Assembly: GCF_029227915.1 (NCBI RefSeq)
Contig: NC_079887.1
Coordinates: 17,173,650 to 17,237,649 of the forward strand
Source: Hydractinia symbiolongicarpus
Taxonomy: Eukaryota > Cnidaria > Hydrozoa > Anthoathecata > Hydractiniidae
DNA: 64,000 bases
Direction of reading: 5' to 3'
Shown: one piece after another, positions 33,421 to 57,069 of the stretch
How positions within the stretch are numbered: the stretch's first letter is position 1
Layout: the number at the start of each line of letters is the position of its first letter
The notes under the pieces: generated by a model
Seen by the model: the letters and a program-made list of their open reading frames with translations, nothing else
Database searches by the model: none
Told to the model about the DNA's origin: nothing
Program-made: the position numbers and the translations under genes

Positions 33421-33474
33421 CCCATGATTATAGCTTTCTTATATCTGTCGCGATGCATCAAGTTTGTTCTGGGG

Positions 33475-35328: not shown

Positions 35329-35745
35329 CAAACTATTTACAAATAACTTTCAAATAAATTAAGAAGTTATATGCTACAAACTATTTATAAATAACTTTCA
35401 AATAAATTAAGAAGTTATATGCTACAAACTATTTATAAATAACTTTCAAATAAATTAAGAAGTTATATGCTACAAACTATTTATAAATAACTTTCAAATA
35501 AATTAAGAAGTTATATGCTACAAACTATTTATAAATAACTTTCAAATAAATTAAGAAGTTATCTGTTACAAACTATTTATAAATAACTTTCATATAAATT
35601 AAGAAGTTATATGCTACAAACTATTTATAAATAACTTTCAAATAAATTAAGATATTATATGTTACAAACTATTTACAAATAACTTTTAAATTAAATAGTA
35701 TTTAAAATTAATTTCACAAATAACTTTTAAATAAATTAGGAACAG
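35329..35745. repeat. Minisatellite, 48-bp unit, about eight copies
   Basis: Unit ACAAACTATTTATAAATAAC followed by TTTCAAATAAATTAAGAAGT and TATATGCT repeats in head-to-tail order. Inner copies are nearly identical; the last two degrade. Confidence 0.93.
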
Positions 35746-36458
35746 ATCCAAACATGATATTTCGTCACTAAAATTATTAAAAAAACAAAGAATGTACCAT
35801 TTCGTTTTATTTCCAAATCGTGACAATTAAAGCTTACTTTTCATTTCAACACAACTTAATCTCAAAACAAATATTTAAAGAAATATATCTCTTTTTGCCT
35901 CAAGGTTAAACAAGCTACTTCAATACAAATCTGCTCGTCATCTTAAATAAAACGTCCGTCCAAATATAAAAAGATCAACAAGTCCCGAGGATGTTTCAAT
36001 AAGAAATCTCCCGAAAAGCAGGAAACATCAAAGTACATTGATGCTGGAAAACTGATCGAAATTTTAATAGGGGACTCATAGAAAAGACTTTTGTATATTA
36101 TATTTCAGGTTTAACGTTAGATTTTTCTCTGTATCCAAAATAAGTTCACTTATAGCACAGTCATTATATATAACTAGCGCACCCCTGAGCAGCGCAATGA
36201 CGTCAAAATTGGATTTAATCTGAGTAAATCAGAAATAAGTTAGAACGAATAATCATGTCGATACGGCGAAGTAGAAAAAACACAATTTTTAAGGTTAATT
36301 TCTAGTTTCTACGAAACAAAAGCTCTTTTGTTTAATACTAATATGTTATGAACGTTGTGAGATTAACTTATATTTGGGAGTGGAAGGTAAGCTTTAATAT
36401 TCATCAATCACAGTGCTACATGAAATACGAATACACCCGGTAACATCAAATTGTTTGC
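35746..36458. other. 3' flank of the SET-recombinase gene
   Basis: Probably holds the last exon or 3' untranslated region of the minus-strand gene. A possible acceptor TTTTGTTTCGTAG before AAACTAGAA lies near 36320, but no reading frame confirms it. Confidence 0.35.
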
Positions 36459-39400
36459 TTATCTACTAAGATGTAAACTATTTATTGTGATTCTTACCTT
36501 TAAAGCTCTTTCTGTTTTTAGTAGGTGATTTCGGATACAATCCTTAATATTGGTCCACTTTCGATTAATAATTTTGTTTTTATCAATAAATTTTTGGCAA
36601 TCTTCTTTCCCAGGCAGCTTTTTTTCTATGATATTTCTATGAAAATGCGTGAAGACTAAATTTAATTCTTCTGCACTCCACGAATTCCAATTCCTCTCTC
36701 TTTTTTTCCCAAGTGTCACTAAAATTATAACAACAACAACAAAAACGGGTTTGCCTACTTTCATTCATAAATCCGCATTCACATCTATGTATTTTCTTAC
36801 ATATGGGTTTATGTAACTTTTTGCATAACATAAGAATGAATAAACACTCAAGTCTTATGCAAAAAAATGGATAGATGTAAATGCGGCTTAAGAACCCAGA
36901 GTTCCGATTTATATTAAAATATCACCTTTCGACTTTGCTCCCTTAGCTTCGGAAGCACGGGTTTCACTCCCCTTCCCTTTTAGGCCTAAAAAGTGAATAA
37001 ATCTAACGTCATGGCTTAATAATGAGCGTTTCTTTTTATTGATTTAGGAACATGTTTTTAACCTGACCTTTGGTACTGGAAACTAAGCTTGTATCCACTT
37101 CTTCAAAATCATCTTCAACTAAAATGTTTATAAAAAAATTAAAAAACATGTCAAAAAACATAGAGATTTAAAGGGCCAGCGTTGTTAATTTCAATACTCA
37201 TTTAAACGCAAATAAGAAAAAAACGCAAAATTTCAAAAAAAAAAAACGATTCTTATATAATGATATATAACGAGAGATTACCATTTTCTGCTTAACATTT
37301 TTCGACCAGAATGTGACGTGGAATGGTTTTTAAATAATTACCTGTGTCCTGTCCTTCTACAGCATCTTCTGGCAATGCAGGAGGCAAAGAATTCTGAATT
37401 TTTTTTTTTTTTAATTTTAATTAATTTTCTATTTTCTAAAAAGCTTTGCATGTCTAGCAAAATAATAAAAAAACATATATATCATATACCATTCAATGTT
37501 ATTTGATCCAAATCTTTGCCAACCAATTCCTTTCCCATCCCTGCATCAATTGCTAACAGAAGCTTGCTGACTTTCGCTAGCTCAATGGTTGACTCATGTA
37601 ACCGATAGTATTCTCGGTGCACTGCGACATCATGCCCCATATGATTGGCCAGCCACTCCAATTCGTTTTCTTTTAACTGCGCAATTTGTGCGACAGTTGC
37701 GACATATTTTCTCAATTTGGTACTACGAATTAACTCTGGTTTCTCTATTGCAGAAATCTTTCTAACTATGTTGTTTATAGACTGGTAGCCTAAATTTTAA
37801 AGCATACAAGAAACCATAAATTTCACCATACAAAAGTATAAGAAAACGACCTAATTAAAATGCGTGTTTAGAATAATTTTACCTCTTAGAGGATTTGTGG
37901 ATTGTCTGGAAGGCGTTGCAAAAACATAAATGTTGTTTTCAGCCACACCAACAATTTTCCTTAAGTCAATTAGGATGTCTATTGCCTTAACATCGTCCTT
38001 AGACAGAAGCACTGGAACTTGCCTTCCTCTTTTCCCACGAACATGAACTAATTCCAGTCTAAAACGAGTTAAGTGAGTTAAAGTTTTTTATATTTTATCC
38101 TAAGTAGATTAAATTCAACAACGACTAATTTTCGTGGTTGACTAGTCTACAGTATATTTCGCTTGGACTAATATTGGCGGGATAAGCGCTTTTTCAATTT
38201 TTCGCAGAGATTTATTTTCGCGAATGCAATATGGTCAAAACTAAAATAAAATAAAATTTAGAAAAAGTAGTAAAACTTTTAAAACGATGTTCATCTCCAA
38301 TTAAACTTGTTTCCAACACCTCTTCGACTTACTATGTCAATGAAAATAGAGGCCATAGGTTGATGTGCAATGTTTATTAAATTTCGCAGACAATGGATGT
38401 ATTGATATTTCGCGTTGATTTAATGTCGCAGATGACAAATATTTCGATATTTTGCGTGGATATAATTTCGCGGATAGGTTTTACTACAAATATTTCGCGA
38501 GGACTTAATTTCTCAAATTCTTTAAAAAACCGCAAAAACCGCGAAATTTAATCTGCGCGAAATATAATCCACTTAAGGTAAGCTTTTTCGCGTTTGCGTT
38601 ATAAAGGTTATAAGCGCCTGATTTAAAAAACGAAACACACAATAACAAAAATATATCTTCAGGACAAATATTAAATTCCTCTTACTTGGAGGTTTGCGCC
38701 CCCTACCCTAAAAAGTTTACCTGTTCATCAGTTTCTTTTCCAAGGTGGACAGTGTTTCCAAAATATCACCATGGACAACGTTCGAACGAGAATTTCTTGA
38801 TGTATATCTAGACAATAATATTGAAGAGGGTTCGTTTCCTCTTCTTTTGTTAAAAACTGTAACTCTAGTCAGAATTATGTCTGCTAGCTCCCTCCACAGA
38901 TCTGTGCTCGGGGTTATTTTAATTTCTTTTAGTACTTCTTGAAGTCTTTTATCGCAGTACGATTTCAAGAGAAGCAAGTCTGATGTTAATGGCAGGATAT
39001 CATCTTTGTTGAATCTATTATCAGCCAAGGAACGCAAGGAAGCAGAAGAAATCCTCACAGACCATTCACTTTGGAAGATTTTCTGAAATTTCTGCGCTTT
39101 GACAACAATTGCGTCATCACCTTTTCTTAGACCTAGCCCTTGCAACAACATGGCACAGTTCTCCAGAGCGTAACCGAGTTTTAATGCTAATGATGGCTTA
39201 TTAAATGCGGGCACTTTTTCACCGTCATTATTGGTGTTTGTGAACCCAGCAAGACGTTTGGTGGCCTCAACAACATCATCAAAGAAAGCTGGACTTAAAC
39301 AGTCCACCAATGAGAAATCTTTCATGTTTGCATTTCTTCTTATTTCCAGAACCAACCTGGCCAATATCCTCATTTTCTGTGATATGTTGGACGATTTTTT

Positions 39401-42400
39401 AACCCCCTTTCCACTGACAATAAACGATCCATATGTAAGGATTAGTTCGTCGCTTTTAATAAGTTCTTTAATATTGTCATTATTCATTGGTTGAACAACA
39501 AATTCTTGCAGTTCTATTGAACCACCAACCGGTTTTTTTTGGGGGTACAGAAGCAGTTCACACTGATTTTGAATGTTAATGTGGTGCTCATCTCCTTCAC
39601 TTTTTCGATGCACGCATCTTTTACAATGTCTGTTTATGTCACCAGCGTAAAAAAAACCCAGACAAAATTTGCATGGTATATAGTCGTCGGGCTTGTGTAA
39701 TCCTTTTGACTGTCGGTAAATAATCATACTACCATGTCCCGCTTTCAAGACCTTTGTGTTATGAAAAAAGTCGCCTTTTTTTCGTAGAGCGTCAATTGCA
39801 TGCTTTCGTTTGACTGACTCATTTTTATCTTTAACGGAAAGGTTTAAGATTGCTTGCACCACTTGCTCTTTATTGTGGTGGCGAAAAAGATGTCGTGACA
39901 ATTTTGAGGTAAGTGTCCCGCAAAAGTAACAAGCATGTACTCTGTCGTAAATCCTGAGTCCACTTTTGGTTTTGTTCGTCGTAGGAATTATAACACCTGA
40001 ATTGGATATTAGAACTTAGGTTTTTTTAATCCATAAAATTTTAGAAGATTAAAGAATGTGTATAGTTACCTACCTTCAATTAATTCTTCTTCTTTCTCTC
40101 TTTCGCTTTCTGCTTCTGCCTCACGGAAATTGAAAACATCTATATCATTTATATCGTCAACTAAAAAAATAGATTTTCGACATAGTTAGTGTGACGTTAG
40201 TTTTATCGCTGACAATTTATTTTCTACGAAGAAATTTGCCTACAACTACGAATGTATTCGGGAAATTTTCTCCGTTTTCTTTTACTAAGAATACGCGGAA
40301 AGTATGTTACAAAATGTTTAAAATCCTTTGTCAATATTTATTCTGTTGGTTATCACTTTTACGACTGTAAATTCGTCACAATCCTAGTACAGTAAACTAC
40401 AATAAACACATAATTAAAACCTTATTCACACGATAAAGTATTCATTGTGTAATGAAATGTTTAATGATATTTGTTAAACGTGTGGTTCAAATGTTAACGT
40501 CGACTTTTTTGAAGTTAATGCTACATAGGGTAAAATACATAAATAATTCTTAATAAATAACAGGAAAATAGTACATTTCTGATGCTACGCAAGTCTGCTT
40601 GCTGTGGAAGGGTCCAAATTTAACCTCACGATTGCACATAAAATGCTAAATCACCTCTGCCAACTAAATATAACCGCTGTGACCAAAAGTTTAAGCATGT
40701 TGTAAAATTATATTTTTTTTATGTTGAATTATGTAGAAGTAATAAAAATTCACTAAGGTCATAACTTAGCCCTATGACATCACATGCACTAAAAATAGGC
40801 TCTTTTTCCAATTCATCAATATTATTTAATTTCTGACGTGTTACTACAGCCTTGATTCCTTGCGCTGGACTAGTGGATTAATTCAAATCAATTAGTTTCA
40901 ACCAAAAAAATTATTTTAAAAAAATTGATCATTTGGATAAAAAATGACGTTATAAAACAAAGTTTCGTATTTTATGGATAAAGATACAAAGATCCGATTT
41001 TCTAGAAATATTAATGTGAATGTCATTAAACTTGGTACATATGTACAATATGGCATTTGAAGATGATCCAGGCAAAAAAAAATTGTTCATAACACCTGTA
41101 AATCTCCTTAAAAAACACTTTGGTCACCACCAGTTACCAAAACAAATCTATATTATAATACCCGTATACGTCTGTCCGTTTGTCTGTCACGCAAAATGGT
41201 AGCTTAGCTGCGCAGGTAGCAATACGCGCGCAATGCGGTGTAAAAAGGACGGGCGAACTCGTGGATTTTTCCACGGGCTAACGACAAATTATATAAAATA
41301 ACCAATATAACATGATGCAACACTCTTACATAGATTTCAGCTGTACTCCTGTCCCATAAATGCAATATTCCCCTAATCGTATTTAAAAATAAATTTTTTC
41401 AAAACATTTTTTTTATCGGAAGTTCCAATAAAAGTTAGGAAAATTTAAAAAATTTCAGCAATAAATCACATGCCTAACACAATATACGACTGTTTAAATA
41501 GGACGCAGGCACTTTGTGCCCCCAGCTCGTTCCTGGTGTTAATAGGGTTAAAGTGAATTCTGCAAGGCAAACAGAAGTTACAGACCAAAAACCCCAGGTT
41601 GGAAATTTTTGTCCCCACAGCCAAGCATGAATCGGGTTAAAAAAATGAAGATCACGTCTTACTTTTCACAGTAACTTTATTTTTATTGCCACCATCGCCG
41701 TGTTCGCTGTCATATTCCTCACTTTCACTTGATTCTGAAGGTTTGTAAGACATTGTCTCCCGTGTATCATCTAATTCAGAATCCTGAAGGCAAGGTGGTA
41801 AAAACAGTTTTTGCAAAAAACTGTAAATGAGCATACACATAAAATAATAACTCACGTTGTCTGATTCTTTTTCATATTCTTCTTCGTATGTCTCATTAAC
41901 ACTGGGCATATCGCCAAACAAGCCGGAATCGTTAATAAAGGATTTCTAAAGTGTGTGCGAAGAAAGAGAAATATAAGAAACATGTGGTCAACCGGAAGAC
42001 AGCCCAACTTGTTAAATTAGGCGTATTGCGTTGATTTAGTATTGATGCTGATTAACATCAATCTAATGAAAAAGCATAAAAACCTGGAAGTCAGAAATAT
42101 TTGGTTGTGCATCTTTCGGCCTAAAGTGAAAAAAAAATCATGATACACGCATTTTCCAAATTTCTTTGATGTACCGCAGCTTTTTTTCAAGCTAATGAAT
42201 GTAATTTTTTGAAATTATCATATATTACTTGACGATCTTAAAAACAAAACGAAACATTAAAACTTTAATATTGCAAAGAACAATCGGGAAATGTGTTTCA
42301 CCACCAAAGTTATCTGACATATACCTGATTGAAGAAAATTAACGAATCAGGATTTAACGCTGTTTGGCCCTCAACCGCGTTAATTTTGCGAAGCATTAAT

Positions 42401-45400
42401 TTCGTATACGCGTTAATTAAGTGATACATTAATTTTGTGACCGTGTTAGTTTCATGAACTTTGTTTTCTGCTAAAATTGTAAAAAAAAATTTTAACCCTG
42501 ATCCATGCCAAATTCATGAAAGAGATTTAGCACAAAGAAGTTGGACGTCAAACAGTATTGAATGGCTGGAAGGTAGAAGATGCTTGGAGTGGTATCGTAG
42601 TTGAATATAGCCCTTTTCTTAAAAAGAAACGGAAAAAAATTTTCAAACAAAATTTGTTTTACTACATTTCCTCCAAACTATGTTAATTTAATGCACACGC
42701 AACGTATTTTCAGGAAAATCGCGTTAATTTTATGCTTCCAAAATTCGGCAAACCGCGTTTATATCATGTACGTTATTTTTCTAAGTTGTTAATTTTCTGA
42801 TTCGTTAATTTTAAGTAATAATGTATATTAAAACTGTAGTAGCTATACGCACACGTTTTACACTCTAAAATAATGGTATTCACCTGAACGGGTGCACAAC
42901 AAACTTTTATAATGTCTTTTAGTGTTGGTTTCTAAAAAAAAAGTAGAAGTCGAATTAAGGACCACATGTTTGCAAAACATTTTTTAAACAAAAAACGTGT
43001 GTTCATGAAATTAAACACTTGCAAAAATTTGTTTTCAAAGAGATCATTGATTCAATCTAATGACTTTAATTTTCAATTTTTACTCTAGAAATCAAAAATC
43101 CACAAAAAATACCTTCCGCAAAATTTCATATTCTTCCTCATCCTCTTCTTCAGTTGAATTCTCGACAGAGTTCTATAATAAATCAATCATTATTAATGTT
43201 ATATGGCTTGTCGTTTATTTAGCAAATACAAGGATTTGTGTGTGTTTACGTTAACATTTGGCGTAGTGACCCGTGTTGCAAAATCTTGACATTTAGCTGG
43301 TTCATTCTGAAAAAAAAATTTATTTGACTTTTTTAAACAAGCACTACAATGATAATTATAATAACCAATTACATAATTGGAAAGCTTTTTCAAAATTATG
43401 CGTTTTTTTTATAAAAAATCAAAAAATGGCCAACTAATAAACGTTTCTTAACAAGTTTCTTAACTTTAACGGAGTAAAATAGAAGAAAAGAATAATTTAT
43501 GCCTATTTTGCCTATCTACAATGGTGTCTGTTCCGTTGATCTGATATTTCTTAGTTTTTTTAAGGCCACCAGGCAGTTTCTTATAAAGTATATTTCTTTT
43601 AAAAAACAAGCGTGTAGATAAGAATTACTTCAGAAAAAGTCTCCAAATTCTCGAAATCTGTTTAAACAATGGCACATTTACCGTACAAAAACGTGAGTAA
43701 ACGTAAAATTTTGTAAAGATTTTTGAACTTTATAAAAAACAAAGTAAGTTTTAGGTAACATCATGCCTCATAAAATCTTAAGACCAACCAAACAAAGTTA
43801 AAAATACAAAAAAAATAAAAAAATATACCTTATATTCAACAAAGCTGGAAACAAGCTGCCTCGTGATGCTCATGTCCACTTCGTCATCACTATCGAAAAA
43901 CTAAAAGAAGAAAGTATATTACGACGTGTTTTTAATGCGATATCAACCAACCTCGTTAATTATTTCTTAAATATGAGTATACATTTTTCACTTCACTTTT
44001 TTCTATTAGAACCAGGAAATTTGTTTTGTACGATAAAGCTTTAGATTTTTAGAATCTCCCGATTCATTAAAAACTCCCAATGTCGGTGTTTATCATAAAA
44101 ATTGTATAAACAGCTAGTTTCTTTTTTATGGACACGAATTGTTATTATATTAAAAATTATTCCGCGAAAAAATCCACGAATTCACCTGAGGAACAAACTT
44201 TTGCCTGTTGTATATATTTCTCGCATCGGTATTCCGAGCATCGTTGCATGAAGTTATGAAATTGGCTACTCTCTGCGGCAGTGAAAGAGAAGTTGTGAAT
44301 AGCTTTAAAAAGCTCAATTTGACAGTTTTCTTATGCTTTTACAGATTTTTCAGTTAAGAAGATAATAAGGATATAAGCTTCAGCCAAAATTGTAAATGGT
44401 GAAGCTCAAACAAACTTCACGAAATAAATTCCGATTTTAGTAACTATAAAAACAGAGCTTGTAATTATATTTTTAGGCTACATTTTTGCATCCCACGGCC
44501 CGGCTCAAATAGGGTTAAAAAAGAGCTTTCCAGCGGTTGAAATAAAAACAGAATAAAGCTATCAGTTTCTAATTCGCGGAATAGGTTCTCATGAAAGTTC
44601 CAAAATGAAATTGTAACTTTGTCATAACAGGTATTATTAAAATAGAGATAAGCCAAATAAAATTTAAGGTATGAATGTATAAACAATTTGTGCTCGTACT
44701 GAAATCTTTAAAACATTGCCTACCAACTTTTCGCTGAATAAATCTCCTTCAACGACCATCTGAGAAAAAAAGTTAAACCAATTATGGGCTAAAAAGGCAT
44801 CCAGATGCGCTAAGATGACATAGATGTTGCCGTGTTGTTCTGGATATTAGCCTTGGGCTTATCATGATAAATTTTAAAAAACAAGTTTGGGTGGACTTAT
44901 ACGCGGGTGGGCTAAGAAAAAACTAGAAATTTTTAATACATTCCAGAACTAAATAAATTACCATTTTCTTATGTCCCATTTCTGAATTAGCCTTCTCTGA
45001 AGCCTGAGAAAAAGAAAACTGATTTCAACTATTCCGCTAATACAAGTGGGTATGATTTAAATAAATTCGATAACTAAAAAAATTACCAGTTTTTCATGTC
45101 CCATCTCTGAATTAAACTTCTCTGAAACCTGAGAAAAAAAATGATATTTCGCTAATTACAAGTGGATATGACTAAAGTACATTCGAGAACCTAATAAATT
45201 ACCAGTTTTTCATGTCCCATCTCTGCATTAAACTTCTCTGAAACCTGAGAAAAAAATGATATTTCGCTAATTACAAGTGGATATGACTAAAGTACATTCG
45301 AGAACCTAATAAATTACCAGTTTTTCATGTCCCATCTCTGCATTAAACTTCTCTGAAACCTGAGGAAAAAATGATATTTCGATAATTACAAGTGGATATG

Positions 45401-48400
45401 ATTAAAGTACATTCGAGAACCTAATAAATTACCAGTTTTTCATGTCCCATCTCTGAATTAAACTTCTCTGAAACCTGAGAAAAAAAAATGATATTTCGCT
45501 AATTACAAGTGGATATGACTAAAGTACATTCGAGAACCTACTAAATTACCAGTTTTTCATGTCCCATCTCTGAATTAAACTTCTCTGAAACCTGAGAAAA
45601 AAAAGGTTTTCGCTAATTACAAGTGGATATAACTAAAGTACATTCGAGAACCTAATAAATTACCAGTTTTTCATGTCCCATCTCTGAATTAAACTTCTCT
45701 GAAACCTGAGAAAAAAAAGGTTTTCGCTAATTACAAGTGGATATAACTAAAGTACATTCGAGAACCTAATAAATTACCAGTTTTTCATGTCCCATCTCTG
45801 CATTAAACTTCTCTGAAACCTGAGAAAAAGAAAAATAATATTTCGCTAATTACAAGTAAATATGATTAAAGTACATTCGAGAACCTAATAAATTACCAGT
45901 TTTTCATGTCCCATCTCTGAATTAAACTTCTCTGAAACCTGAGAAAAAGAAAAATAATATTTCGCTAATTATAAGTGGATACGACTAAAGTACATTCGAG
46001 AACTAAATAAACAGTTGTTTTGGTTTGATGATTTATTTCAAGGCAGCGTTTTTCTTTATTCTAGATTAACCTTAAGGGAGAAAAGAGTTCGCTTTTGTGC
46101 TTCAGTTTACCGCAAAATTTCAGTAGCTTGCGGGAAATAACTTCCACGAATCTACAAAATTAAATTTTTTGTGGGAAAATTTTTGTGATTCTACTAGATT
46201 TTTCGCGGAAATCGAAATGGAAGATATTTTTCGATTGTTTATTTGTACTCTGATAATTACATTTATTTTAGCTATACGTTTTGTACGCAATTACTTGTTC
46301 ATCTAATTTGGACTAGTTTTAATGAAATTCTATAAATTTTGTCTATCCAGCGAAATTGTCACAGACCATTTTAATGAGAAAGTTTTTTGCGGTTCATGAT
46401 TGACCTTGTGGGAATAAACCTTTGGCAATTTTTCAAAAAACGTAACAATTGCAAAAGTTTTTCCGCAAACACTTTCCTCTAAAGTATTTAACTTGTAACT
46501 TTAGTGCAACATAATATGTACTTATACATCTATTTCATGAAAAAACCTTTTTTATTCTGTATCTCCCCTACGTTAAATAGATTATGTATTATAATGAAGT
46601 AAATAGCTCTTCGCAAAAAAATAATTTTGATATTACCTTCTTAAACACAGATGTCTCTTCTAATTCTCTGTGCATTGCTGATCTTGGCTAAAGTTATAGT
46701 TATGATATATTGATTTTTGAGAACGTAAGGGACTGTTAATATGAAAGGCGGGAAGAAAAGATTGCCGGGACGGTACGTTTGGCCAGATCCCGCTCTCAAT
46801 AATAACTAAACTAAAAATCACTTTGTGTTTATGGAAAATTTTTGTCCTACGACAATTTCTTTCTATCACGGCTCACCGGGATCCTGCTTGAGCTAAGCTG
46901 GATCCCACCTTAGTCGGCACTTTTTTTTTCCATACTGACCTAGGATTTTCGGAATCAGACAACAATTCAACAATCATTTTGTACACTGGAATAAGTAAGA
47001 GTTTAAATGTTTAAATTATTGTAAATTTTTATTATAGATAAATAATGATCATGGCCCAAAACGTTCTGATCTTTAGAGTTACAACAAAAATTAACAAATA
47101 AACGAAAGATGTTTGTTATCGTAACTTGCATTGTTCATTATGCTACTTTATAAAATTTCTTTTAATGTAATCTTATAAGTTTTGAGTACATATAATTTAT
47201 TTTGATTTTTTGAATTTGGCGCTTGTTCGTCCCCGGCCCACTCTTTTCCATACACAAGCGGGACAAAATCGACCAGGCAATCGTCCCGTCTCGCCTTTCA
47301 TAGAAACAGCCACTAATTTTCAAAGAATATAAACCAATAAAACGTTAGGTCTTATTTTTCAGAAAGGTAACTGACAGCTGTATGACAGTAAAACGCTTGC
47401 AAGAAATGGAAAACAAAGAAATGAACACTAAAACCCGCAATGGCGTACCGAATAATATATACTTTGCATATCTTGTATAACCTAAATGAAATATACATAT
47501 ACACTGTATTGAATGGTGTATCATACACATTTTCTTTGCGACGTTTATACAGGTTAGAAATTCTTGGCTCAACCACTATACATTAGACTCTTTATTCATT
47601 TGAATTCAGGGCCAACGCACAGCTATTGAAATCAAGAGGGTTACATTAACAAGACGGTGCCAACTCAAAGTCGAACCGAGGCGCAAAGCAAATCTGCCTT
47701 TAAACGCCCTCTTCAAAATTTAAATCAAATTTTTAAGCGCTCAGTAAAGTAGATTTTACAACTTCGTGAATTCGATAACGGAATGTTCCAAATAATCTGC
47801 CATAAAAGTCCTACGAAAAGTCTTTTACATAAAAGGACTTTTCGTAAAAGACTTGTTTTTTATTTTCCCTTCGTTTCTCTGGACCACGCTCCCGACTCAA
47901 CCCTCCCTATTTTCTACTTATAAAGTAATCAATCTCAATATAGTGTGTGACAATGAAAATAATAATAATATTGTACAATATAGTTTTAAAAGTTGCCGAT
48001 GTAGACATAACACCTTTCAAGATGTTTGTAAATTGGCTGCGAAAACTGTGAAACTTTGGCCAAGAAAGGGAACAAATTTCTGTCAGACCGGTAGGAGTAT
48101 GAAACTATAAAACTATACAGCCCGTTTTAAATTTTTGTTTGCTTTAAGACATTTTTTCAGGTACGTTTCAGGTGCTTTGAACGTCAAAACAAGCATATGC
48201 GATGGAGTCTAATAATGGTACATTTATAGTCTTGTTTTTGTTTCTACACTTCCCAGACCTCACACAATATTTTACTACTGTGAAAATCATCACACCAACC
48301 CTTTTATTACACAACAAACAACAATAGAGAACGTACAACAATTGAAGAATTAGAAAAAGAAGTACGCAATATTTTAATTTTCTTTATAAACTTGTTTTGT

Positions 48401-51400
48401 TTGTTTAAAAAAAATCTTTCCTTGACTGTTGCAGATGTAAGTGTACACAAGAAGCACTTCTTTGAAGTAAAAAGAAAGTAAAATTTTCATAGTTTCGGAC
48501 ATTAATGATAACTGTGAAAGAAACTCTTTTAGAAAACTTTATTCAATTGAGGAAGTATATATTACATTGTATGGCCAGGTTCGCGCTAAATAACGCACTT
48601 ACTTACTACATGTACCATGGGCGTATTGTCATGACTTTTTTACGGGGTAAAGAACATACAGGACAAGACTAAAGCATTTTAACTTACCGTAGAGACTTTT
48701 GGTGCAATCGTAATAGGCATCTTGGTGTTTTTATTCTAAGATGAATTTTATAAGAATATTACAAAAATGTTATAATTTGTTGTTTCTTTCTTTATAACTA
48801 ACTAACTAACTAACTGTTCTCCAAGGAAGATTGCTGTCACCATAGGAATATCTTAATTCGGTTCCAGCCACTATTTCGTTAACAAGAACGAACAGACAGA
48901 AATGGACTCTGCCGTTAACTTCTATAGGGCGCATTTTTGAATTACAAAACGCCACTGCGCTGTCGTTGACGTATTTACCTAACCGTTCTGAGAAGGTTCC
49001 GTCAATACTATAATCAAAAAAAATGTGAGAGTAGAAATGAGAGAATGATGTACATCTATTATTCTCGCATGAAAATTTTTCCAAATTCTAGTTTAACGAA
49101 AAAAAAGTCGGCAAAAAGTGACTAAATTTTGTGCAAGTGAACAACATTTTTGCCGACCGAAAAATTCTTACTGACTTTTTTTACCGATAAGGTATATCTG
49201 TCTAATACTTACCAACATTTGTTGAAAAAAAACAAGAATGAACCAAATTTAGCGTTATAGCGTTGCTGCCTTTTTTCTCCTTCCTCGGAGCTAATAAGTT
49301 CCCCAGGATACTCCAATAAGAACTCCCCCTTCGTAAAATTCTTTTCTGCGAAAACTCCGAAACCTAAAAAATTATTTTAACTTAATTAGCTACTTTGTAC
49401 ATTGCGAACTTGCTGCCTGGTAGTAAAGCAAAATACATTTGCTAAACAGAGTGCAATTTGCGATTAATTTTTAGTTAGTAGTTTAAAAAGGCGAACGAAA
49501 TAAAAGAAAACAGGGTAATAAATGTCCTCTGTGCCACGTTAAATCCAGATTTTCTCACATTTTTCATTCGTCACTTAATGCCTTGCCTTAATTTTAGATG
49601 TTTTTAATGGTTCCATTAACCTTGAAGGTTAAATGACTCTGTTCTTGTAGAGAGGAGGGCATCTTTTTAAAACACGTTTTTTTAAAAAGGAACATAAAAA
49701 ATAACTATATTATTTCATAATATCTTTAAAACACACCAATTTTATCTAAGTTTAAAGCATTTTCCGGCAATTAAGAGGTAATGATTTTCAAAATTTCCCT
49801 CGGTCAAAACTATAGGTGGCCCTCGCGCAGACACTGAACTGCTAATAGAATGATTCAAAAGATATGTCTCCACTGGGTGATATTTGCGACGGTTTTTGCG
49901 ACAAAAAGTAGAAACCAATTCAACTTTTTGTCATGACGACAATCGCGACCAAACCAATGAAATTCCAGTATTTATGACGATCGTCATAAAAATTGCCTAG
50001 TGAAGATTTGGCATCAAAATGAAGGAAAAAATTCGCGATTATGATTTGCAAGCAGCACAATAGCCAAAAAAATAAATCAAGTAACCATAGACAATATGTC
50101 TTAACAATAAAAAAGTAAATTTTCACGATTGAAAACATATTAACTCTTTTCTGCTTTGGCGCTTCATAAGAAGCTCAATTTCATAAATTGCACTCTAAAG
50201 GAGTTACGGATTAATTTGCACTTATAAAGGGCGTCGTTTCAATAATATCTCACAATCATTCTATTAAGGACAAAATTTGTATAAACAGTTACAACTGTGC
50301 GCAAACTGCAGTGTTCATGAGGTTGAAGGATATGTTATTAAGCATTGGAGTTGACTTAGAACTATATTTTTCAAATTACGTAATTTTTATTGAACTTGTC
50401 AAATTAAGCACAGCGAAAACACGTGTTGATCATCCACGAAATTAAATGCCCCGAAAACTTTAAAAACCACCGAAACTATGAAATTTTATTGCACTTTTGC
50501 TGTTGCCCCATTTAGGTTTATTTCACTTTGCAATTAAGGACAAAGAGGTCACCTGTTCTAAAAAGGGGAAAATTAATGGGGGGATTATTTTGCAAAATTT
50601 CTTAAAATTGCTGGATAATTTTTCTTCCCTGAATTTTTCGTCCGCTGAGATATTGTATTTCATTGTATTTTGCTTCTGCTAACTTTAAAATACCTCTTCT
50701 ACTAATTCCTTGAAACATTCTATCTCCCAAAAATAACGGTTATATTATTTATACAAGAAATGCGTAGTGATTAATTTTCTTTCGTTGGTAAACTTCCATC
50801 TGCAAAAACTTCTGCACCATTTTTTTTTTAATTTCTTCGTACTTCACAATAATTAATTCCGCAAAAATTAATTCCGCAAAAATATACTCTGCAAAATGAA
50901 GTATTTGGGGACTACTCATCCCCAAAAATATGGTTCGCAAAAATTTATTCCTCAAATAATTTGTACGCATAAGATAATTGTTTTTGGCATTTAGGAATGT
51001 GTTTTTTTGTAATACTTAGCATACCTATTTCTTTATTTATGTAATATTTTCTCAGCCCGTCCTGATCTACACCTTTCGTTACATGAGCCACTGCCACTTC
51101 ATTATGATCGATTTTGGCTCTCTTTCTGCGACCCTACAATATTAAAATACTCATATTAAGACTATGCCCAAAAAGTTTAATCTTATTAATTTTATTTCTT
51201 TGGAGATATAGTGCACAAGACAATCTTAAAGAAGAAAGAACAATGTGTTTTTTAGTTGTTTTAAAAGCAGTAAATTGTGCTTTTTGCTTTATTTTTACAT
51301 TTTTTTTTGTAGCTATCGAGTTATTAAGAGACAAAAAATATAGATTGAGTTAAACTGTATTCGAGTTATCCGGCGTAATTATAAAGAGTTTGATAAGCAA

Positions 51401-52056
51401 AACCCTTAGGAAATCAAAAAAAGTTTAAATAGCCCATATTCGAGTTAAGCAGCAGCTACTGTAAAAAGAAAATTGTTTCTTAGTAGTAAATGTAGATTCG
51501 CTTGATTTTGTTCTTATAATCTTTAAAAAAAATTCTTGGCAAAATGTCAGATTCAACATTCCTATAAACTGGGTTCTGATAAAAAAACGTATATACCGTG
51601 GAGATTTCACTCTGGTTTTACCAAAAACAGCAGTAGTTTAAAATTATGTAAAATGTTTCTAAATAATCAGTGTCTCAAGAGAAGGCTATAGGCCGCATAA
51701 AGGAAAGCAGTAAAAATCTTTCTCAATAAAATATCCCCTAATTTACGATCTTATATCAATCAGAATAAAAATATTAGTAATAGCAATAACATGAATTTGA
51801 TTTGTGAATAATAGTTGGGATTATTTTCGAATTAAGATTTTCACGGTTCTGATAACTTCCTAAAAATCTATTTTTTTTCAATAAATCAAAAAAATATTTT
51901 CATTTTATCGATATTGATAAAATACGTTGAACACACATTTTACATTTTTATAAAACCGGGTAGTGGTATCAGAAAAAATTAAAATCAGTCATATATATAA
52001 TTACAGCATGTACAGCATTTCATTACTGATCTAAGCCTAACCTGTCTACAAGCCAT
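36459..52056 (-). CDS. SET domain - mini-exon linker - zinc finger - tyrosine recombinase gene
   Basis: A minus-strand gene of at least 29 coding exons was assembled by eye with matching phases throughout. SET exons: 51133-51025, 49363-49213, 49007-48815. Linker exons: 48735-48688, 46687-46637, nine 42-bp exons (45938-44962), 44759-44724, 43900-43829, 43306-43250, 43172-43113, 42931-42884, 41945-41856, 41783-41663, 40160-40074. Zinc fingers and recombinase: 39996-38721, 38058-37883, 37789-37490. C-terminal: 37368-37342, 37118-37068, 36985-36926, 36718-36498. A tentative first exon is 52056-52042. This gives about 1,209 codons before the unresolved end. Recombinase genes of this type, with a C2H2 start and a C-terminal Trp domain, are common in cnidarian and fish genomes as host-like Crypton relatives. 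I believe KMT5A-like SET parts are sometimes annotated with them, but that is recollection. Likely a nuclear protein, inferred to be a chromatin factor or a transposase-derived host gene. Confidence 0.72.
36498..36718 (-). CDS. C-terminal Trp-containing domain exon
   Basis: Encodes RNWNSWSAEELNLVFTHFHR, then KKLPGKEDCQKFIDKNKI and RKWTNIKDCIRNHLLK. The W-[S/T]-x-x-E ... LPGKxDC ... R-x-Wxx[IV]K-xxxRN pattern closes many recombinase-like proteins of this family and may be a Myb-like DNA-binding fold. Phase 1 in; donor AAG|GTAAGA is phase 0. If unspliced, the frame stops at 36459. Confidence 0.75.
36926..37368 (-). CDS. Three short linker exons after the recombinase
   Basis: Exons 37368-37342 (DAVEGQDT; acceptor TGCATTGCCAG), 37118-37068 (EDDFEEVDTSLVSSTK) and 36985-36926 (LKGKGSETRASEAKGAKSK). 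All are phase 1-1, so any of them could be skipped without a frameshift. They form an acidic then basic flexible tail. Confidence 0.6.
37490..37789 (-). CDS. Recombinase catalytic exon (Arg II, His, Tyr)
   Basis: Encodes STKLRKYVATVAQ (box II; Arg present, but the His of HxxR is Thr) and then LANHMGHDVAVHREYYRL. The GH His and the nucleophile Tyr nine residues later sit at canonical spacing. Ends LAKVSKLLLAIDAGMGKEL. Phase 1-1. Catalytic set here: R-K-(T)-R-H-Y. Confidence 0.87.
37883..38058 (-). CDS. Recombinase exon with the beta-hairpin Lys
   Basis: Encodes RLELVHVRGKRGRQVPVLLS, the beta-hairpin carrying the conserved Lys of tyrosine recombinases (compare GKGxKxRxVPL), then IDLRKIVGVAENNIYVFATP. 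Phase 2 in (GTTTTAG|A), phase 1 out (AGAG|GTAAAA). Confidence 0.85.
38140..38600. repeat. Degenerate TTCGCG/ATTTAAT word cluster
   Basis: Many copies of ATTTCGCG, TTTCGCGGA and CGCGAAATTTAAT within one intron, with no fixed period. Similar clusters are at 42355-42790, 46100-46450, 50400-50960 and 54835-55260. Confidence 0.5.
38721..39996 (-). CDS. Zinc-finger and recombinase N-terminal exon
   Basis: A 1,276-bp exon of about 425 residues. First comes a C2H2-like finger (CYFCGTLTSKLSRHLFRHH), then a second (CKFCLGFFYAGDINRHCKRC), then an all-alpha core-binding-like region. The end is ILTRVTVFNKRRGNEPS, where the Arg of KRRGNEPS fits catalytic Arg I of tyrosine recombinases (R-x-x-E). Phase 1 in (ATTCAG|GT), phase 2 out (AACAG|GTAAAC). 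No stops or shifts. Proteins with this layout occur widely in cnidarian and fish genomes. Confidence 0.88.
40074..40160 (-). CDS. Linker exon, 87 bp, acidic
   Basis: Encodes DDINDIDVFNFREAEAESER followed by EKEEELIE. Phase 1 on both sides (TTTTTTTAG|TT and GAAG|GTAGGT). Confidence 0.7.
41170..41285 (-). repeat. Foldback repeat copy (inverted) in an intron
   Basis: Reverse complement begins GTTAGCCCGTGGAAAAATCC, ACGAGTTCGCCCGTC and ends ACAGACAAACGGACAGACG. Same family as 57070-57165 and 11820-12180. Confidence 0.7.
41663..41783 (-). CDS. Linker exon, 121 bp, acidic
   Basis: Encodes DSELDDTRETMSYKPSESSE, SEEYDSEHGDGG and NKNKVTVK. Phase 0 in (CTTCAG|GAT), phase 1 out (AAAA|GTAAGA), which then fits the next exon. 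Confidence 0.65.
41856..41945 (-). CDS. Linker exon, 90 bp
   Basis: Phase 0-0 exon encoding KSFINDSGLFGDMPSVNETY followed by EEEYEKESDN, with donor AAC|GTGAGT. Confidence 0.65.
42884..42931 (-). CDS. Linker exon, 48 bp
   Basis: Phase 0-0 exon encoding KPTLKDIIKVCCAPVQ between TTTTTTTTAG and CAG|GTGAAT. Confidence 0.55.
43113..43172 (-). CDS. Linker exon, 60 bp, acidic
   Basis: Phase 0-0 exon encoding NSVENSTEEEDEEEYEILRK between TTATAG and AAG|GTATTT. Confidence 0.6.
43250..43306 (-). CDS. Linker exon, 57 bp
   Basis: Phase 0-0 exon encoding NEPAKCQDFATRVTTPNVN, ending at donor AAC|GTAAAC. A shorter form using CGG|GTCACT is also in frame. Confidence 0.5.
43829..43900 (-). CDS. Linker exon, 72 bp
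   Basis: Phase 0-0 exon encoding FFDSDDEVDMSITRQLVSSF and then VEYK, between CTTTTAG and AAG|GTATAT. Confidence 0.6.
44155..44290 (+). repeat. Decayed foldback repeat copy
   Basis: CGCGAAAAAATCCACGAATT, then TATATATTTCTCGCATCGGTATT and CTCTGCGG parallel the unit at 12012. It lies in an intron between linker exons. Confidence 0.5.
44724..44759 (-). CDS. Linker exon, 36 bp
   Basis: Phase 0-0 exon encoding MVVEGDLFSEKL between TTTCTCAG and TTG|GTAGGC. Its end (SEKL) echoes the array unit, which suggests common origin. Confidence 0.55.
44962..45938 (-). repeat. Tandem array of nine 42-bp mini-exons
   Basis: Copies (high to low): 45938-45897, 45819-45778, 45705-45664, 45591-45550, 45474-45433, 45359-45318, 45244-45203, 45128-45087, 45003-44962. 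Each is preceded by a T-rich CTCAG acceptor and followed by a GTAATTTA donor, is exactly 42 bp, and is phase 0 on both sides. Eight encode VSEKFN[S/A]EMGHEKL; the last encodes ASEKANSEMGHKKM. The repeat unit (exon plus intron) is about 114-121 bp, and introns are as conserved as exons, so duplication is recent. Any number of copies can be included without a frameshift. Confidence 0.85.
46637..46687 (-). CDS. Linker exon
   Basis: Phase 0-0, 51 bp, encoding PRSAMHRELEETSVFKK, from AACTTTAG to AAG|GTAATA. Other nearby AG sites could shorten it. Confidence 0.45.
46727..47315. mobile_element. Non-autonomous DNA transposon, about 590 bp
   Basis: The left end GGGACTGTTAATATGAAAGG, then CGGGA, GATTGCCGGGACGG, matches the reverse complement of the right end GTGGCTGTTTCTATGAAAGG, then CGAGACGGGACGATTGCC. 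Inside are GGGATCC and CCCGC words common in such elements. No coding frame. It sits in an intron of the SET-recombinase gene. The target duplication is unclear. Confidence 0.6.
48688..48735 (-). CDS. Linker exon after SET
   Basis: Phase 0-0 exon encoding NKNTKMPITIAPKVST with a perfect donor ACG|GTAAGT and acceptor CATCTTAG. It begins the run of short in-frame exons. Confidence 0.6.
48815..49007 (-). CDS. SET domain exon B
   Basis: Encodes IDGTFSERLGKYVNDSAVAF, CNSKMRPIEVNGRVHFCLF and IVAGTELRYSYGDSNLPWRT. It aligns with the CIDAT...LGR.xNHS and the GTELxYDYG-x-xxPWR ends of KMT5A-like enzymes. The usual catalytic 'NHS' is 'NDS', and 'YDYG' is 'YSYG'. Phase 2 in (GATTATAG|T), phase 0 out (ACA|GTTAGT). 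Methyltransferase activity is therefore uncertain. Confidence 0.85.
49213..49363 (-). CDS. SET domain exon A
   Basis: Encodes GFGVFAEKNFTKGEFLLEYP followed by GELISSEEGEKRQQRYN. The GxGVFA start and LLEYxGELI (cofactor-binding N-terminal part) are typical of KMT5A/SET8-type SET domains. Phase 1 in (TTTTTAG|GT) and phase 2 out (TGTTG|GTAAGT). Confidence 0.85.
49866..50006. mobile_element. Short MITE with TCTCCACTGGG ends
   Basis: Left TCTCCACTGGGTGATATTTG and CGACGG mirrors right CGTCATAAAAATTGCCTAGTGAAGA. The middle can pair (ACAAAAAGT with ACTTTTTGT). About 140 bp, in the first SET-gene introns. Confidence 0.55.
51025..51133 (-). CDS. Pre-SET exon of the SET-recombinase gene
   Basis: After TATTGTAG the frame reads GRRKRAKIDHNEV and ends GLRKYYINKEIG at phase 1 donor ATAG|GTATGC. 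The next exon continues GFGVFAEKNF, so the junction recreates the N-terminal strand of a SET domain. The basic start could be a nuclear localisation signal. Confidence 0.7.
52042..52056 (-). CDS. Tentative first exon (MACRQ) of the SET-recombinase gene
   Basis: ATG GCT TGT AGA CAG followed by GTTAGG would give a phase 0 donor that fits the phase 0 acceptor at 51133, yielding MACRQ-GRRKRAK. The ATG has G at +4. Only five codons are involved, so chance is a real alternative. Confidence 0.3.
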
Positions 52057-54240
52057 TAAGATTGATAATTGAAAACTGGGATTCTATGAGAAAAAAAGGA
52101 AATAAATTAGGTGTCGTAAACTGTAGCAAGCGTAATTTGGTGTCGGAGTTCAATATTATTTCAGATATTTGAATTTTAATATACATATTAGTAATTTAAA
52201 CAATAACTTTATAACTTTGTTGTCATTTCATTGGTTTCCATACTTTGTTTTGCTAAAAAATAAACTGCCTACCACATTTTTTTCAGCAAATAATTTCTAC
52301 CTCACTAATTATTCGTGGAAGAAAATGTGGTCATCTGCAAAAATTTCTTCCACGATAAATTTGTATCCTTAGGGTGTTCTCTATATATAGAGTTTAGCTT
52401 AAAAAATAGCATTTTTGAAAAAAGTAAAATAAATAAAAAACTGGGACTTTGTGAAGAACAATAAATCGTTTTACATACATCTTTCACATTTCTTTGAATA
52501 GCTTATATAGGTGTTTAAAAATGCTTTTTAGTAATGTATGAATAAAAAAACCTCCATTTACTATTGCCAAAAATATCACGATTTATAAAACCAAGTTCAA
52601 AAGGTATACCTTAAGGTATACTTTAGTTGTTTCAGGATTGGTAAAAATGTTTTATACACATTTTATTCACATTCTCATACAATATTAACAAAAAGCTGAA
52701 CATAACGCCTATTCAGTACTTTAACAGGCAACAATTTTTCTTCCTAAATATATATTGTCTTTGGAGCTCATTAATCAACCTGATATATACAGAGCTTCAG
52801 CTACAAAAAATTACAAATCCTAATCCATAACAATTCTCTGCAATTATTGATGGTGTACAAAGCAGGTATAGGCAAATTAAATTTTAGGTCAGCAGATTTT
52901 TACTGATTTAACGTGAGAAAAATGAATTAGAAAGACTGAGGTAGCTGCTTCTGGGACATATATTTTAATAATATAATACAACAGTCAGGGAAAACTTTCA
53001 AATATGCCATTACTATAAGATGTTAAGTATCAATTAAGCATCTGGTACATCCTATAAGCAGCAAATCACTTATATATTTAAAACATTAAAAACAAAATAC
53101 TTCAAAATTCACGCACTAAGTCTCGTCTTTCTTTTGGTGTGCAGAAGTAAGTATGCGTGCCCACCTCCAATTATTTTAAAGCAATAAAAAAATTTGATGT
53201 AGGGAACACATGCTTAAATAGGTGGCAATATCCATCTTGCTTTCATTTAACCAAAACCACATATACAGGCAATGGTGACAAACTCAGTGTGGTATTAAAA
53301 TTTTCAACAAAAGCCTAAAGTACTTGTGACTTATATATATAAGAACCTTAAAATTATGGCGTCGACAATTTATATTAAATTTTTGCCGTTGTTGTGACGT
53401 TATATAACGGCACTACAACAGCAAAAAAAACAAAAAGTCGAACAGCAATGTTTTAAATCTGTGGTAACCTTATATGTTACTTCTTCTGATAGTCACGACT
53501 TCCATTTCAAAAATATCTCGTTTTCGCAAGAAACAACTTTGAATCAATTATTCCGATACCTTGGCTGAAAGCATGCTATCTTATTAACCGTTTGTTAAAT
53601 AAACATGGTTTTGCGTACAATGCTAAATTTTAAGATACTCCTTCTATTTAAAAAACAAACCAGTCCCTAGGGAACAAAAGCAATATATTAGCATTCAAAG
53701 TTTAACCCAGCATATTTACACTGTAATTTCCTTAAGCTGTACTGGGTTTAATTTAAGGGTATATATACTATTTATACTGCAACAGTATATTTAAAAGTTT
53801 TCCCTGACTGTACAAGGCAAGATCAAACTGCTGCTATTTTTTATTGTGTAAAAAATATGGAGCAACTTTGAAATTAGTACAGAAAAATCTTATTTATATA
53901 TCATATAAAAGCTGCAACTCAGATAGACAAATACACAATATAATCATGTGCACTCTAAAAAATAAAATTTCTATATGCACTTGCTTTTGAAGCTAGCTGG
54001 CAAAATGCCTGGAAAATTAACATAAACTTGAAGATGGATAAATAAGAAATTCTTTTCCTTGTATTATAAGTGCATAGTACCTCAAGAGTAACTGACATGA
54101 CTTAAATAAAATACTTAGCTTGCCAGCTAGCTTGTAGTTAGTTATAGCTATATGTTAAAGGGAAAAAATTCATCTTGAAGTTAATTTTCAGCAGAAAAAA
54201 AGAAGCGTAAAAAAGGCTGCCTAGAGAACCAGTTGGAAAG
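52057..54240. other. No gene recognised
   Basis: AT-rich sequence upstream of the SET-recombinase gene; the promoter should lie here, but I see no decisive signal. Confidence 0.4.
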
Positions 54241-54289
54241 TAAAAATATCATACCTTGAGTTCCTCAATCTTTTAGCCAATCTTTTAGT

Positions 54290-54450
54290 TTTCCGACTGT
54301 CAGAGATGAAAGTGAAGTCGCGAACATGTACTGCAATATGGGGTTCGATTCCTCGTAATTCGAACGGTCCCCACAAGGCAAGTGTGTAAATTTACACATC
54401 AATCCCAACCATGCTACCTATGGTCCCCACAAGACCGTGTGTTAAATTTC
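54290..54450. repeat. Box B-like word and inverted GGTCCCCACAAG units
   Basis: GGGGTTCGATTCCTCG (about 54340) resembles a pol III box B without a matching box A or acceptor stem. Two GGTCCCCACAAG units follow, the reverse complement of the 55.4-kb array motif. Confidence 0.45.
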
Positions 54451-54834
54451 ACAATGGTCACAATCGAAGTTGTGCAAATAACACGGGATATGTGCATATG
54501 TTTTCATGACTTTTAAAGGCTCTGCTTTTTTTCTTCGTTTTTCTTGAACTTCGCCATACTTGTTGTCATTTTGAAAATTTGTTTACCGCAAAAGTGCTGA
54601 CTAAGCGCAATCTGCTGCTTTCGTACTTTACAGAACGTTCGGTTTACGACAGACCCAATCCAAATCCCTGGCCCTTTCTTATTTAATTTTTTGACTTGAG
54701 ATAATATGCCCTAAAGGACCACTAAATATTACTCGTATTAATTTCCGCTATAAATCATTAAAATTGTGAATGGAGCATATTTCTGTGCGTTATTAATTTT
54801 AGAAATTTTTATCTTATTTTATTATCTTAAAGGG

Positions 54835-55260
54835 GACAAGTTTTGGCGTAAAAAAAACTTGGCGGTATTGGCAGATTTAACAAAAAATTCTCTAAATTAA
54901 ATTCCTCCAAAATTAAACTTTATTACAGTCTGTCAAATTAAATTCCTGCCGAAATGATATTTTTTTCGCTATCCGTCGATTTCTTCGTGTTTCTGCAAGA
55001 AATTCTCGTCCCCAAAGCTCTTGCATGAGAAGATTATAATTGACGACGGTATTGGCGACGACGAGCGACTTTCTTTTTTATCTAAGTTATTAATGTAAAA
55101 AGCTAATGTAGTCGATTGATTTATAAAGAAACAAATAAGAATACATACGTTTAATTTTTTTTCGTCACCCGTTCAATTAAATTCCTTCAAAATTATTTTT
55201 TTTTTTTGCTATCCGCCAAATTAAATTTCGCTAATTCCGCCAAATTTTTCTTCGACCAAA
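54835..55260. repeat. Degenerate AAATTAAATTCC/CCGCCAAATT word cluster
   Basis: Repeated CAAATTAAATTCCT, CGCCAAATTAAATTTCGC and TTCCGCCAAA words in AT-rich DNA. Same general type as the 38.1-kb cluster. Confidence 0.5.
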
Positions 55261-55419
55261 TTTTCTTTCCGCCAAAAATTGCTTCCTTGAGAATAAAACG
55301 GAGAAAATATGATTTCTAGAAATTTGTAGCACTACTCAGCGTTATCCCATAGTGACAACCAAACTCTACTGCCTATTGTTATATATCTAACAAAAACATT
55401 TAACATGCACGCTTAGGGC

Positions 55420-56330: not shown

Positions 56331-56455
56331 ATAGCTTAGTAGTGATAGCTTTGACTGGCTGGAGAGACGGATATACGGTAAAAATATACCTTAGGTTGAT
56401 TAACAAATTTTCGCGAAGGGTTTTTGATAAGAGAATCCTGGGATTACGCCTATAG

Positions 56456-57064
56456 TTGTCAGGTAAAAAAGATACACATTTTGTGATATTTTTTAACCAT
56501 TATAGATTTTACTTTTGCGAATCTAACAGTATTTTTACAGTATTTTTATTGAAATAAGGTACTTTTTCAGGGCTGTAGCTGACACCTAAATCTTCATTTA
56601 TTTTTGGGAGAGGACATGGAAAAATTTGAGATTTTAAACTTGATGTTGGGTAAAAACGCTTCCTCTCTGCACAGGTTTCTTTATATGAACTGACGAAAAT
56701 ATTGCTACCGCCTTCCTTTTCAAATACTGATAGAATATTTTAAAATTATAAAATTCAATTTTTAGATTATTATGGTAATATCAAATCAACAACAAAAAAT
56801 TAACTCAACGCATTTTTCACAGAATCAATTACAAAGTTGTAAAATCCTACTGAAGAAGTAAAAAAAATAAGAGCAGTTCAGCCAGAAGCCAAATCTTCTG
56901 GCTTTTAAAGAAAATTGTACTTAACAGCTGAATTAATATAGAATATTTAAGCTACAGATTTTACATATAGTATATTTGTTTTAAAAAATGTTAAAATTTT
57001 TACTCGATTTTTTTAAAATTAATCTGGGAACTTCTGGAAGCCTGAAATAAAACTTAATATATAT
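56456..57064. other. No gene recognised
   Basis: AT-rich sequence between the minisatellite and the next foldback repeat copy. Confidence 0.4.
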
Positions 57065-57069
57065 ATAAT

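What the first reader, a model, noticed from the sequence alone, without database searches (positions are those of the whole stretch)
44962..45938. Nine tandem 42-bp mini-exons, each with its own splice sites
Nine copies of an in-frame 42-bp exon, encoding a 14-residue unit, sit in a satellite-like array with about 115-bp spacing. Introns and exons are equally conserved. Because each copy is phase 0-0, the linker length can vary in 14-residue steps by splicing or by array expansion. A minisatellite whose unit contains a complete exon is rarely described. It may set the distance between the SET and DNA-binding halves.
Basis: seen in the sequence. Interest (0 to 1): 0.9.

Follow-up and report, generated by a model that had tools for sequence, protein, structure and literature searches.

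The report
Mini-exon array in a mobile gene
In a jellyfish relative, a jumping-DNA gene that joins a histone-methyltransferase-like domain to a recombinase-like half carries nine tandem copies of a tiny exon between the two, and related genes in other animals carry different repeats at the same spot, so this linker looks like a place where protein length can change in whole-exon steps.

Summary
In detail: nine 42-bp units at 44962-45938 (minus strand), each between AG and GT, phase 0-0, spaced 114-125 bp. They lie in a 28-exon open frame: SET, array, acidic linker, zinc-finger-like stretch, recombinase-like region. The gene sits in a mobile element of about 31 kb with imperfect inverted termini. 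The array was found at two loci: C13 (9 exons) and a broken copy on C1 (10). In C13, 1 of 42 exon columns varies against 7 of 41 intron columns; in C1, 5 of 42 against 3 of 42; so "equally conserved" fails here. Support is comparative: of 127 relatives, all 10 with a Pfam SET domain have other repeats in this linker; pipefish isoform models differ by whole 21-residue units; a Hydractinia paralogue has one phase 0-0 exon per unit. No transcript was available, and capped searches found no public protein with the array. Tandemly repeated exons are already known elsewhere.

The parts
44962..45938 (-). array of nine 42-bp mini-exons with eight introns of 72-83 bp between them
45897..45938 (-). mini-exon 1, VSEKFNSEMGHEKL
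45778..45819 (-). mini-exon 2, VSEKFNAEMGHEKL
45664..45705 (-). mini-exon 3, VSEKFNSEMGHEKL
45550..45591 (-). mini-exon 4, VSEKFNSEMGHEKL
45433..45474 (-). mini-exon 5, VSEKFNSEMGHEKL
45318..45359 (-). mini-exon 6, VSEKFNAEMGHEKL
45203..45244 (-). mini-exon 7, VSEKFNAEMGHEKL
45087..45128 (-). mini-exon 8, VSEKFNSEMGHEKL
44962..45003 (-). mini-exon 9, divergent last unit ASEKANSEMGHKKM; its upstream intron type is shared with the last unit on C1 (1 difference in 42 exon and 1 in 78 intron positions)
48688..51133 (-). SET exons 1-4 (51133-51025, 49363-49213, 49007-48815, 48735-48688); KMT5A-like SET domain
   Evidence: (Pfam SET 2.7e-13)
41663..44759 (-). linker exons 14-20 (44759-44724, 43900-43829, 43306-43250, 43172-43113, 42931-42884, 41945-41856, 41783-41663), all starting in phase 0; acidic
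40074..40160 (-). linker exon 21
37490..39996 (-). exons 22-24 (39996-38721, 38058-37883, 37789-37490): zinc-finger-like stretch (by eye) and tyrosine-recombinase-like region (through relatives)
36498..37368 (-). exons 25-28, C-terminal tail (37368-37342, 37118-37068, 36985-36926, 36718-36498); splice sites chosen to keep the frame
33137..64000 (.). part of the mobile element inside the window; left terminus about 33137; right terminus, read in the C9 and C6 copies only, would lie about 136 bp beyond the window end
33137..33188 (+). left terminus; 33147-33188 is the stretch that aligns, inverted, with the right terminus of the C9 copy (position carried over from C9)
32919..33145 (+). (TACA)n microsatellite abutting the left terminus, the apparent insertion site
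34834..47540 (.). segment absent from six derivative copies, which join 34833 to 47541; it holds the array, linker and recombinase-like exons

Best explanation
The feature is a coding array of duplicated symmetric mini-exons in the linker of a SET-recombinase gene carried by a DNA mobile element of about 31 kb in Hydractinia symbiolongicarpus. A 42-bp exon with its short intron was amplified head to tail, probably by unequal exchange; the divergent last unit may be the oldest. Because each exon is phase 0-0 with good splice signals, any number of copies keeps the frame, so each copy adds 14 residues of hydrophilic linker between the SET half and the recombinase-like half. Shown: anatomy, open frame, copies with shared termini at several sites, copy-number difference between two loci, lower exon than intron variation in the C13 copy, and repeats at the same place in relatives. 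Inferred: that the exons are spliced into mRNA here, the amplification route, and that linker length matters.
For: AG/GT and open phase in 9 of 9 units; exons 4 and 14-20 meet the array in phase 0. 28-exon, 1187-residue frame without a stop. Each of the nine introns that follow a mini-exon has an in-frame stop if retained, so the DNA repeat is not simply an open minisatellite. Acceptor pyrimidine content 0.86-0.93 in the array against a mean of 0.70 for the other 19 exons. Lower exon variation in C13 and none in C1, the C1 copy also having a stop in unit 4, a GC donor in unit 8 and a stop in exon 22. Array copies 9 and 10. Relatives: of 127 retrieved, 10 of 10 with Pfam SET have tandem repeats in the SET-to-core linker (9 flagged by the scan, P0082 by reading); 37 of 127 have internal repeats, judged by the best repeat per protein, and 0 of 37 overlap the core by more than 10 residues, though the core holds about 66% of residues. 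Pipefish models P0107, P0084 and P0082 differ in that linker by exactly 21, 42 or 63 residues without mismatch. In the Hydractinia paralogue LOC130614143 on C11 the five linker units are five exons of 123-129 bp, each between AG and GT.
Against: No cDNA or read was available. Searches scored about 8000 candidates each and found no public predicted protein of 653-2077 or 387-1230 residues closely matching the locus (best 47% identity) and none of 174-555 residues with the array at E<=10; repeat masking could explain this but was not tested. All 6 distinct exon changes among the 17 typical units alter or end the protein, none is silent (with 19% of possible changes silent, none in 6 has a chance of about 0.28; the call printed 0.23 for 7), so nothing shows selection on the peptide. 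The exon-intron test rests on few events. Units are not clearly more alike within than between arrays (0.0524 against 0.0566, permutation p=0.055). Linker exons 14-21 show 2 silent and 9 replacement changes between C13 and C1. The frame was built by choosing splice sites by eye; it has no start codon and no final stop, exon 3 was ended before an in-frame stop, and the exon 25 acceptor was chosen to keep the frame.
Confidence: 0.6

Rival explanations
1. The array is an intronic minisatellite in a silent element copy. It captured an old exon and amplified as DNA; the exons are never spliced in.
For: No public protein with the array was found (capped). No silent changes among exon variants. The other array copy is broken. 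Six element copies lack the segment and one more has the array replaced.
Against: 19 of 19 acceptors AG and 18 of 19 donors GT over both arrays, lower exon than intron variation in C13, 28-exon frame without stop in C13, one exon per unit in the paralogue.
Confidence: 0.27
2. The array works as a splicing switch. Retaining an array intron ends the protein soon after SET, so the mini-exons decide between a SET-only product and the full SET-recombinase protein.
For: All nine introns that follow a mini-exon give an early in-frame stop if retained. Donors are a uniform CTG or ATG before GTAATT, off the GTAAGT form.
Against: Acceptors are pyrimidine-rich; no expression data; isoform models of relatives differ in unit number.
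Confidence: 0.1
3. Assembly artefact: a collapsed or expanded repeat.
For: Short tandem units are error-prone in general (general knowledge).
Against: Units are distinct, two loci on contigs of 28 and 43 Mb carry differently composed arrays, no N in the window.
Confidence: 0.03

Closest known systems
Schistosoma micro-exon genes and the 81-base tandem exons of Davis et al. 1988
   Same: Tandem symmetric exons, multiples of three, with exon skipping giving size variants (passages of PMC4015677, and PMC3961193; the Davis paper seen only as a title in reference lists, not held).
   Different: Those micro-exon products are described as largely secreted; here the exons lie between a SET domain and a recombinase-like half in a mobile element, and the DNA unit is a compact 115-bp repeat.
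Human LPA KIV-2 VNTR
   Same: A tandem DNA unit that contains whole exons and changes copy number (passages of PMC4378929).
   Different: 5.5-kb unit with two exons of 160 and 182 bp coding a kringle domain; here 115 bp with one 42-bp exon.
Xenopus caerulein and magainin tandem-repeated exons
   Same: Duplicated exons with near-zero divergence inside one gene (passages of PMC3731216).
   Different: There they are discussed as raising peptide output; here they would lengthen one protein.
Earthworm metallothionein genes
   Same: Short exons with tandem exon duplications in one clone and minisatellite-like repeats (passages of PMC12783039).
   Different: There the repeats discussed lie in an intron; here each repeat unit holds an exon.
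Animal Cryptons
   Same: Mobile elements with a tyrosine recombinase and shorter non-autonomous derivatives (PMC3212892, section 8 and passages).
   Different: Animal Cryptons are reported there without terminal repeats and without a C-terminal domain; this element has inverted termini, a SET domain and a C-terminal tail. 'SET domain' occurs 0 times in that main text.
KMT5A/SETD8 methyltransferases
   Same: Best solved-structure match of the SET part (1zkk, 6.6e-16).
   Different: Fused to array and recombinase-like half; where KMT5A reads NHS the window reads NDS (alignment).

Membership tests
Tandem exon duplication array | Each repeat unit contains a complete exon with both splice sites | tested here: met
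   9 of 9 in C13; 10 of 10 acceptors and 9 of 10 GT donors in C1 (one GC)
Tandem exon duplication array | Exons symmetric, so copies can be added or skipped in frame | tested here: met
   42 bp, phase 0-0
Tandem exon duplication array | Exons included in mature mRNA | not testable with these tools
   no transcript data
Coding VNTR | Copy number varies between individuals | not testable with these tools
   only one assembly; two loci differ, 9 and 10
SET methyltransferase | SET domain recognised by profile | tested here: met
   PF00856 2.7e-13, 50.7 bits against cut-off 22.4
SET methyltransferase | NHS motif of the active site (motif recalled) | tested here: inconclusive
   aligned residues read NDS; relatives read by eye also have ND
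Tyrosine recombinase | Profile match to Phage_integrase PF00589 | tested here: inconclusive
   window protein 0 families; 4 of 40 aligned relatives match, best 1.1e-6; profile search of solved structures gave no recombinase
Tyrosine recombinase | R-H-R-Y catalytic residues | tested here: inconclusive
   FNKRRG.E, STKLRK, H.GH and REYYR in the 40-sequence consensus; assignment to R-H-R-Y by eye
Crypton | No terminal inverted repeats | tested here: not met
   imperfect inverted termini
Crypton | Animal Crypton protein lacks a C-terminal domain | tested here: not met
   exons 25-28 continue past the recombinase-like region; that they form a domain was not tested
TIR DNA transposon | Terminal inverted repeats and separate insertion sites | tested here: met
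   left end in C9, C14 and window, right end in C9 and C6, different flanks
TIR DNA transposon | Target-site duplication | tested here: inconclusive
   ends in C14, C6 and window abut CA or TACA repeats, which would hide it; no systematic search was made

The most novel reading that the evidence does not exclude
In animal SET-recombinase mobile genes the linker between the two halves is an exon accordion: unrelated symmetric mini-exons have been amplified there independently in cnidarians, fish, echinoderms and molluscs, and splicing sets the reach between a chromatin-modifying domain and the recombinase that moves the element.
Probability: 0.3. Interest if true: 0.82.

Novelty: new variant of a known kind. 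Interest (0 to 1): 0.62.

Why it matters
Tandem exon arrays are known, but recurrent, seemingly unrelated arrays at one fixed position of one gene family would point to selection or a mutational hotspot for modular linker length, and would give a natural series for testing how spacing between a histone-modifying domain and a DNA recombinase affects mobility. It also points to a large mobile element with a SET-recombinase gene: my searches joining SET domain or KMT5A with tyrosine recombinase listed no paper on such an element, in an open-licence library only and judged from listings and a few passages.

Tried and rejected
Rejected: a chromosomal host gene reading; copies at separate sites share a precise left terminus (C9, C14, window) and right terminus (C9, C6). 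Set aside: the ATG at about 46675 as a needed exon; it is cut in the C1 array copy though kept in a third copy; it may be an alternative start. Rejected: a single-unit ancestral copy at C1:29.34M; there 46296-43227 is replaced by about 580 bp of other repeat. Rejected: Crypton membership (inverted termini). No use: hits of Pfam MRP-S28, LbR_Ice_bind and DUF3540 to the array, taken as repeat artefacts; solved-structure search with the profile of relatives gave nothing convincing. Searches for papers on exon arrays listed no closer case than those named. Weak points of the family tally: the 10 SET relatives include four Vanacampus and two Hydra models, so six species; the 127 include other isoforms of one gene (zebrafish); only the best repeat per protein was scanned; P0013 (Montipora), with a partial SET seen by eye but not called by Pfam, was not flagged and is a counter-example. 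Fisher p for 10 of 10 against 27 of 117 is 1.7e-6 but ignores all this. Some zebrafish model pairs differ by 7 or 49 residues, not whole 25-residue units, and the pipefish pairs with P0107 also differ by 16 residues inside the core.
Full report
What is there. On the minus strand of the window nine 42-bp units lie at 45938-44962, each preceded by AG and followed by GT and open in one phase. Eight read VSEKFN[S/A]EMGHEKL, the last ASEKANSEMGHKKM. Spacing is 114-125 bp, the eight introns between them 72-83 bp.

Which genome. The window is C13:17173650-17237649 of a 481-Mb assembly. Contig lengths 42,572,105 (C1) and 33,314,500 (C7) equal the maximum and N50 printed for Hydractinia symbiolongicarpus HSymV2.0 (PMC10411563, passages), and the relative P0001 is named as H. 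symbiolongicarpus LOC130614143 on a contig of 31,041,000 bases, the length of C11.

The gene. Joining 28 exons with AG/GT gives an open frame of 1187 residues: SET domain (Pfam 2.7e-13; closest solved structure KMT5A), the array, an acidic linker of mostly phase-0 exons, a long exon with zinc-finger-like cysteines and histidines (by eye), then a recombinase-like region. The model was assembled by eye and script, lacks a start and final stop, and depends on chosen splice sites at exons 3 and 25. The recombinase call rests on relatives: 4 of 40 match Phage_integrase and the consensus keeps FNKRRG.E, STKLRK, H.GH and REYYR; the window protein itself matches no such profile, the solved-structure search gave no recombinase, and no structure could be predicted.

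The element. Copies on C9, C14 (two), C6, C4 and C1:30.03M join window 34833 directly to 47541, 6 of 6 of these; they keep SET exons 1-4, some with gaps, but lack linker, array and recombinase-like exons. The copy list is a lower bound, since 37 of 2329 candidates were scored. Other fragments match only 36885-42161 (C1:30.117M) or parts of 35781-39736 (C10). The left end stops at about 33137 against unrelated flanks in C9 and C14 and a TACA repeat in the window; the right end, about 136 bp past the window, was read in C9 and C6 only. The ends are imperfect inverted repeats with a GGTCCCCACAAGGCG motif that recurs inside. The whole would be about 31 kb. Other loci of the recombinase family in the genome include pairs on different chromosomes: C11 and C3 both match P0001 at 99% over residues 541-970, and C6 and C8, C4 and C7 give near-equal scores, consistent with mobility.

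Two arrays compared. The array DNA was found at two loci, C13 and C1:29.208M (17 of 17 matches fall there). The C1 array has 10 units, a stop in unit 4 and a GC donor in unit 8; its gene has a stop in exon 22 and collinearity ends at window 38640. In C13, exon columns vary less than intron columns; in C1 they do not. This fits constraint in the intact-looking copy and its loss in the broken one, though few events are involved. None of the 6 distinct exon changes is silent, so the peptide sequence may matter less than the exon's being spliceable. Units are only slightly more alike within than between arrays (p=0.055). Between C13 and C1 the SET exons show 5 silent and 3 replacement changes, exon 22 21 and 14, linker exons 14-21 2 and 9. 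A third copy, at C1:29.34M, has lost array and exons 14-16 to another repeat.

The family habit. Of 127 relatives retrieved (8, 119 more from the 120 of 134 hits listed), 37 carry internal repeats by the scan, and the best repeat of each lies outside the core (10 residues of overlap allowed): 21 before it, 16 after it. All 10 with a Pfam SET domain, from six species, have repeats in the SET-to-core linker, with unit sequences that look unrelated by eye: 21 residues in pipefish, 24 in loach and ark clam, 33 in sea cucumber, about 42 in the Hydractinia paralogue, 50 in Hydra. Pipefish isoform models X2, X5 and X6 from one contig have 5, 3 and 2 units and differ there by whole units; zebrafish models P0054 and P0052 differ by one 25-residue unit in the C-terminal linker, while other zebrafish pairs differ by 7 or 49 residues. 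These isoforms are database predictions, not cDNA that I saw. In the Hydractinia paralogue the five units are five exons within C11:22294692-22298012, which shows the exon-per-unit design in the same genome.

Mechanism. Most likely unequal exchange adds or removes whole exon-intron units, and splicing joins them in frame. Each unit lengthens a hydrophilic linker by 14 residues. Retention of any of the nine introns that follow a mini-exon would stop translation within 3 to 13 codons, so accurate splicing is needed or else a SET-only product arises. Which occurs is unknown.

What is new. Tandem symmetric exons are known in schistosomes, LPA and Xenopus (passages), and earthworm metallothionein genes show exon duplications with minisatellites (passages). 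The fixed position in a SET-recombinase mobile gene and its recurrence with different units across phyla is what I did not find described (searches, an open-licence library, mostly listings). Absence of a matching public protein in capped searches and of any transcript is the main weakness.

Noticed in passing
55519-56314: 43-bp minisatellite built from the element's GGTCCCCACAAGGCG motif.
   Followed up: partly
60573-61940: ORF with a ubiquitin carboxyl-terminal hydrolase domain (Pfam UCH 1.4e-30), inside a stretch (about 58911-62359) absent from the C9 copy.
   Followed up: no
L069 (C1:29347001-29348610): Third gene copy in which array and exons 14-16 are replaced by about 580 bp of another repeat; it keeps the ATG exon near 46675.
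   Followed up: yes
L042, L043 (C11 and C3): Two loci on different chromosomes, each 99% identical to P0001 over residues 541-970, suggesting recent mobility.
   Followed up: partly
35327-35696: 48-bp tandem repeat, 7.7 copies, just past the modelled 3' end of the gene.
   Followed up: no
P0052-P0055, P0057, P0058, P0061 (zebrafish models): Many isoform models with 25-residue units in the linker after the recombinase-like core.
   Followed up: partly
PMC11075544 (passages): Four zebrafish chromosome-4 genes with a SET domain are reported in a maternal-to-zygotic gene block; whether they belong to this family was not tested.
   Followed up: no
14763-15092: ORF with a thrombospondin type 1 domain (Pfam 9.8e-9).
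   Followed up: no
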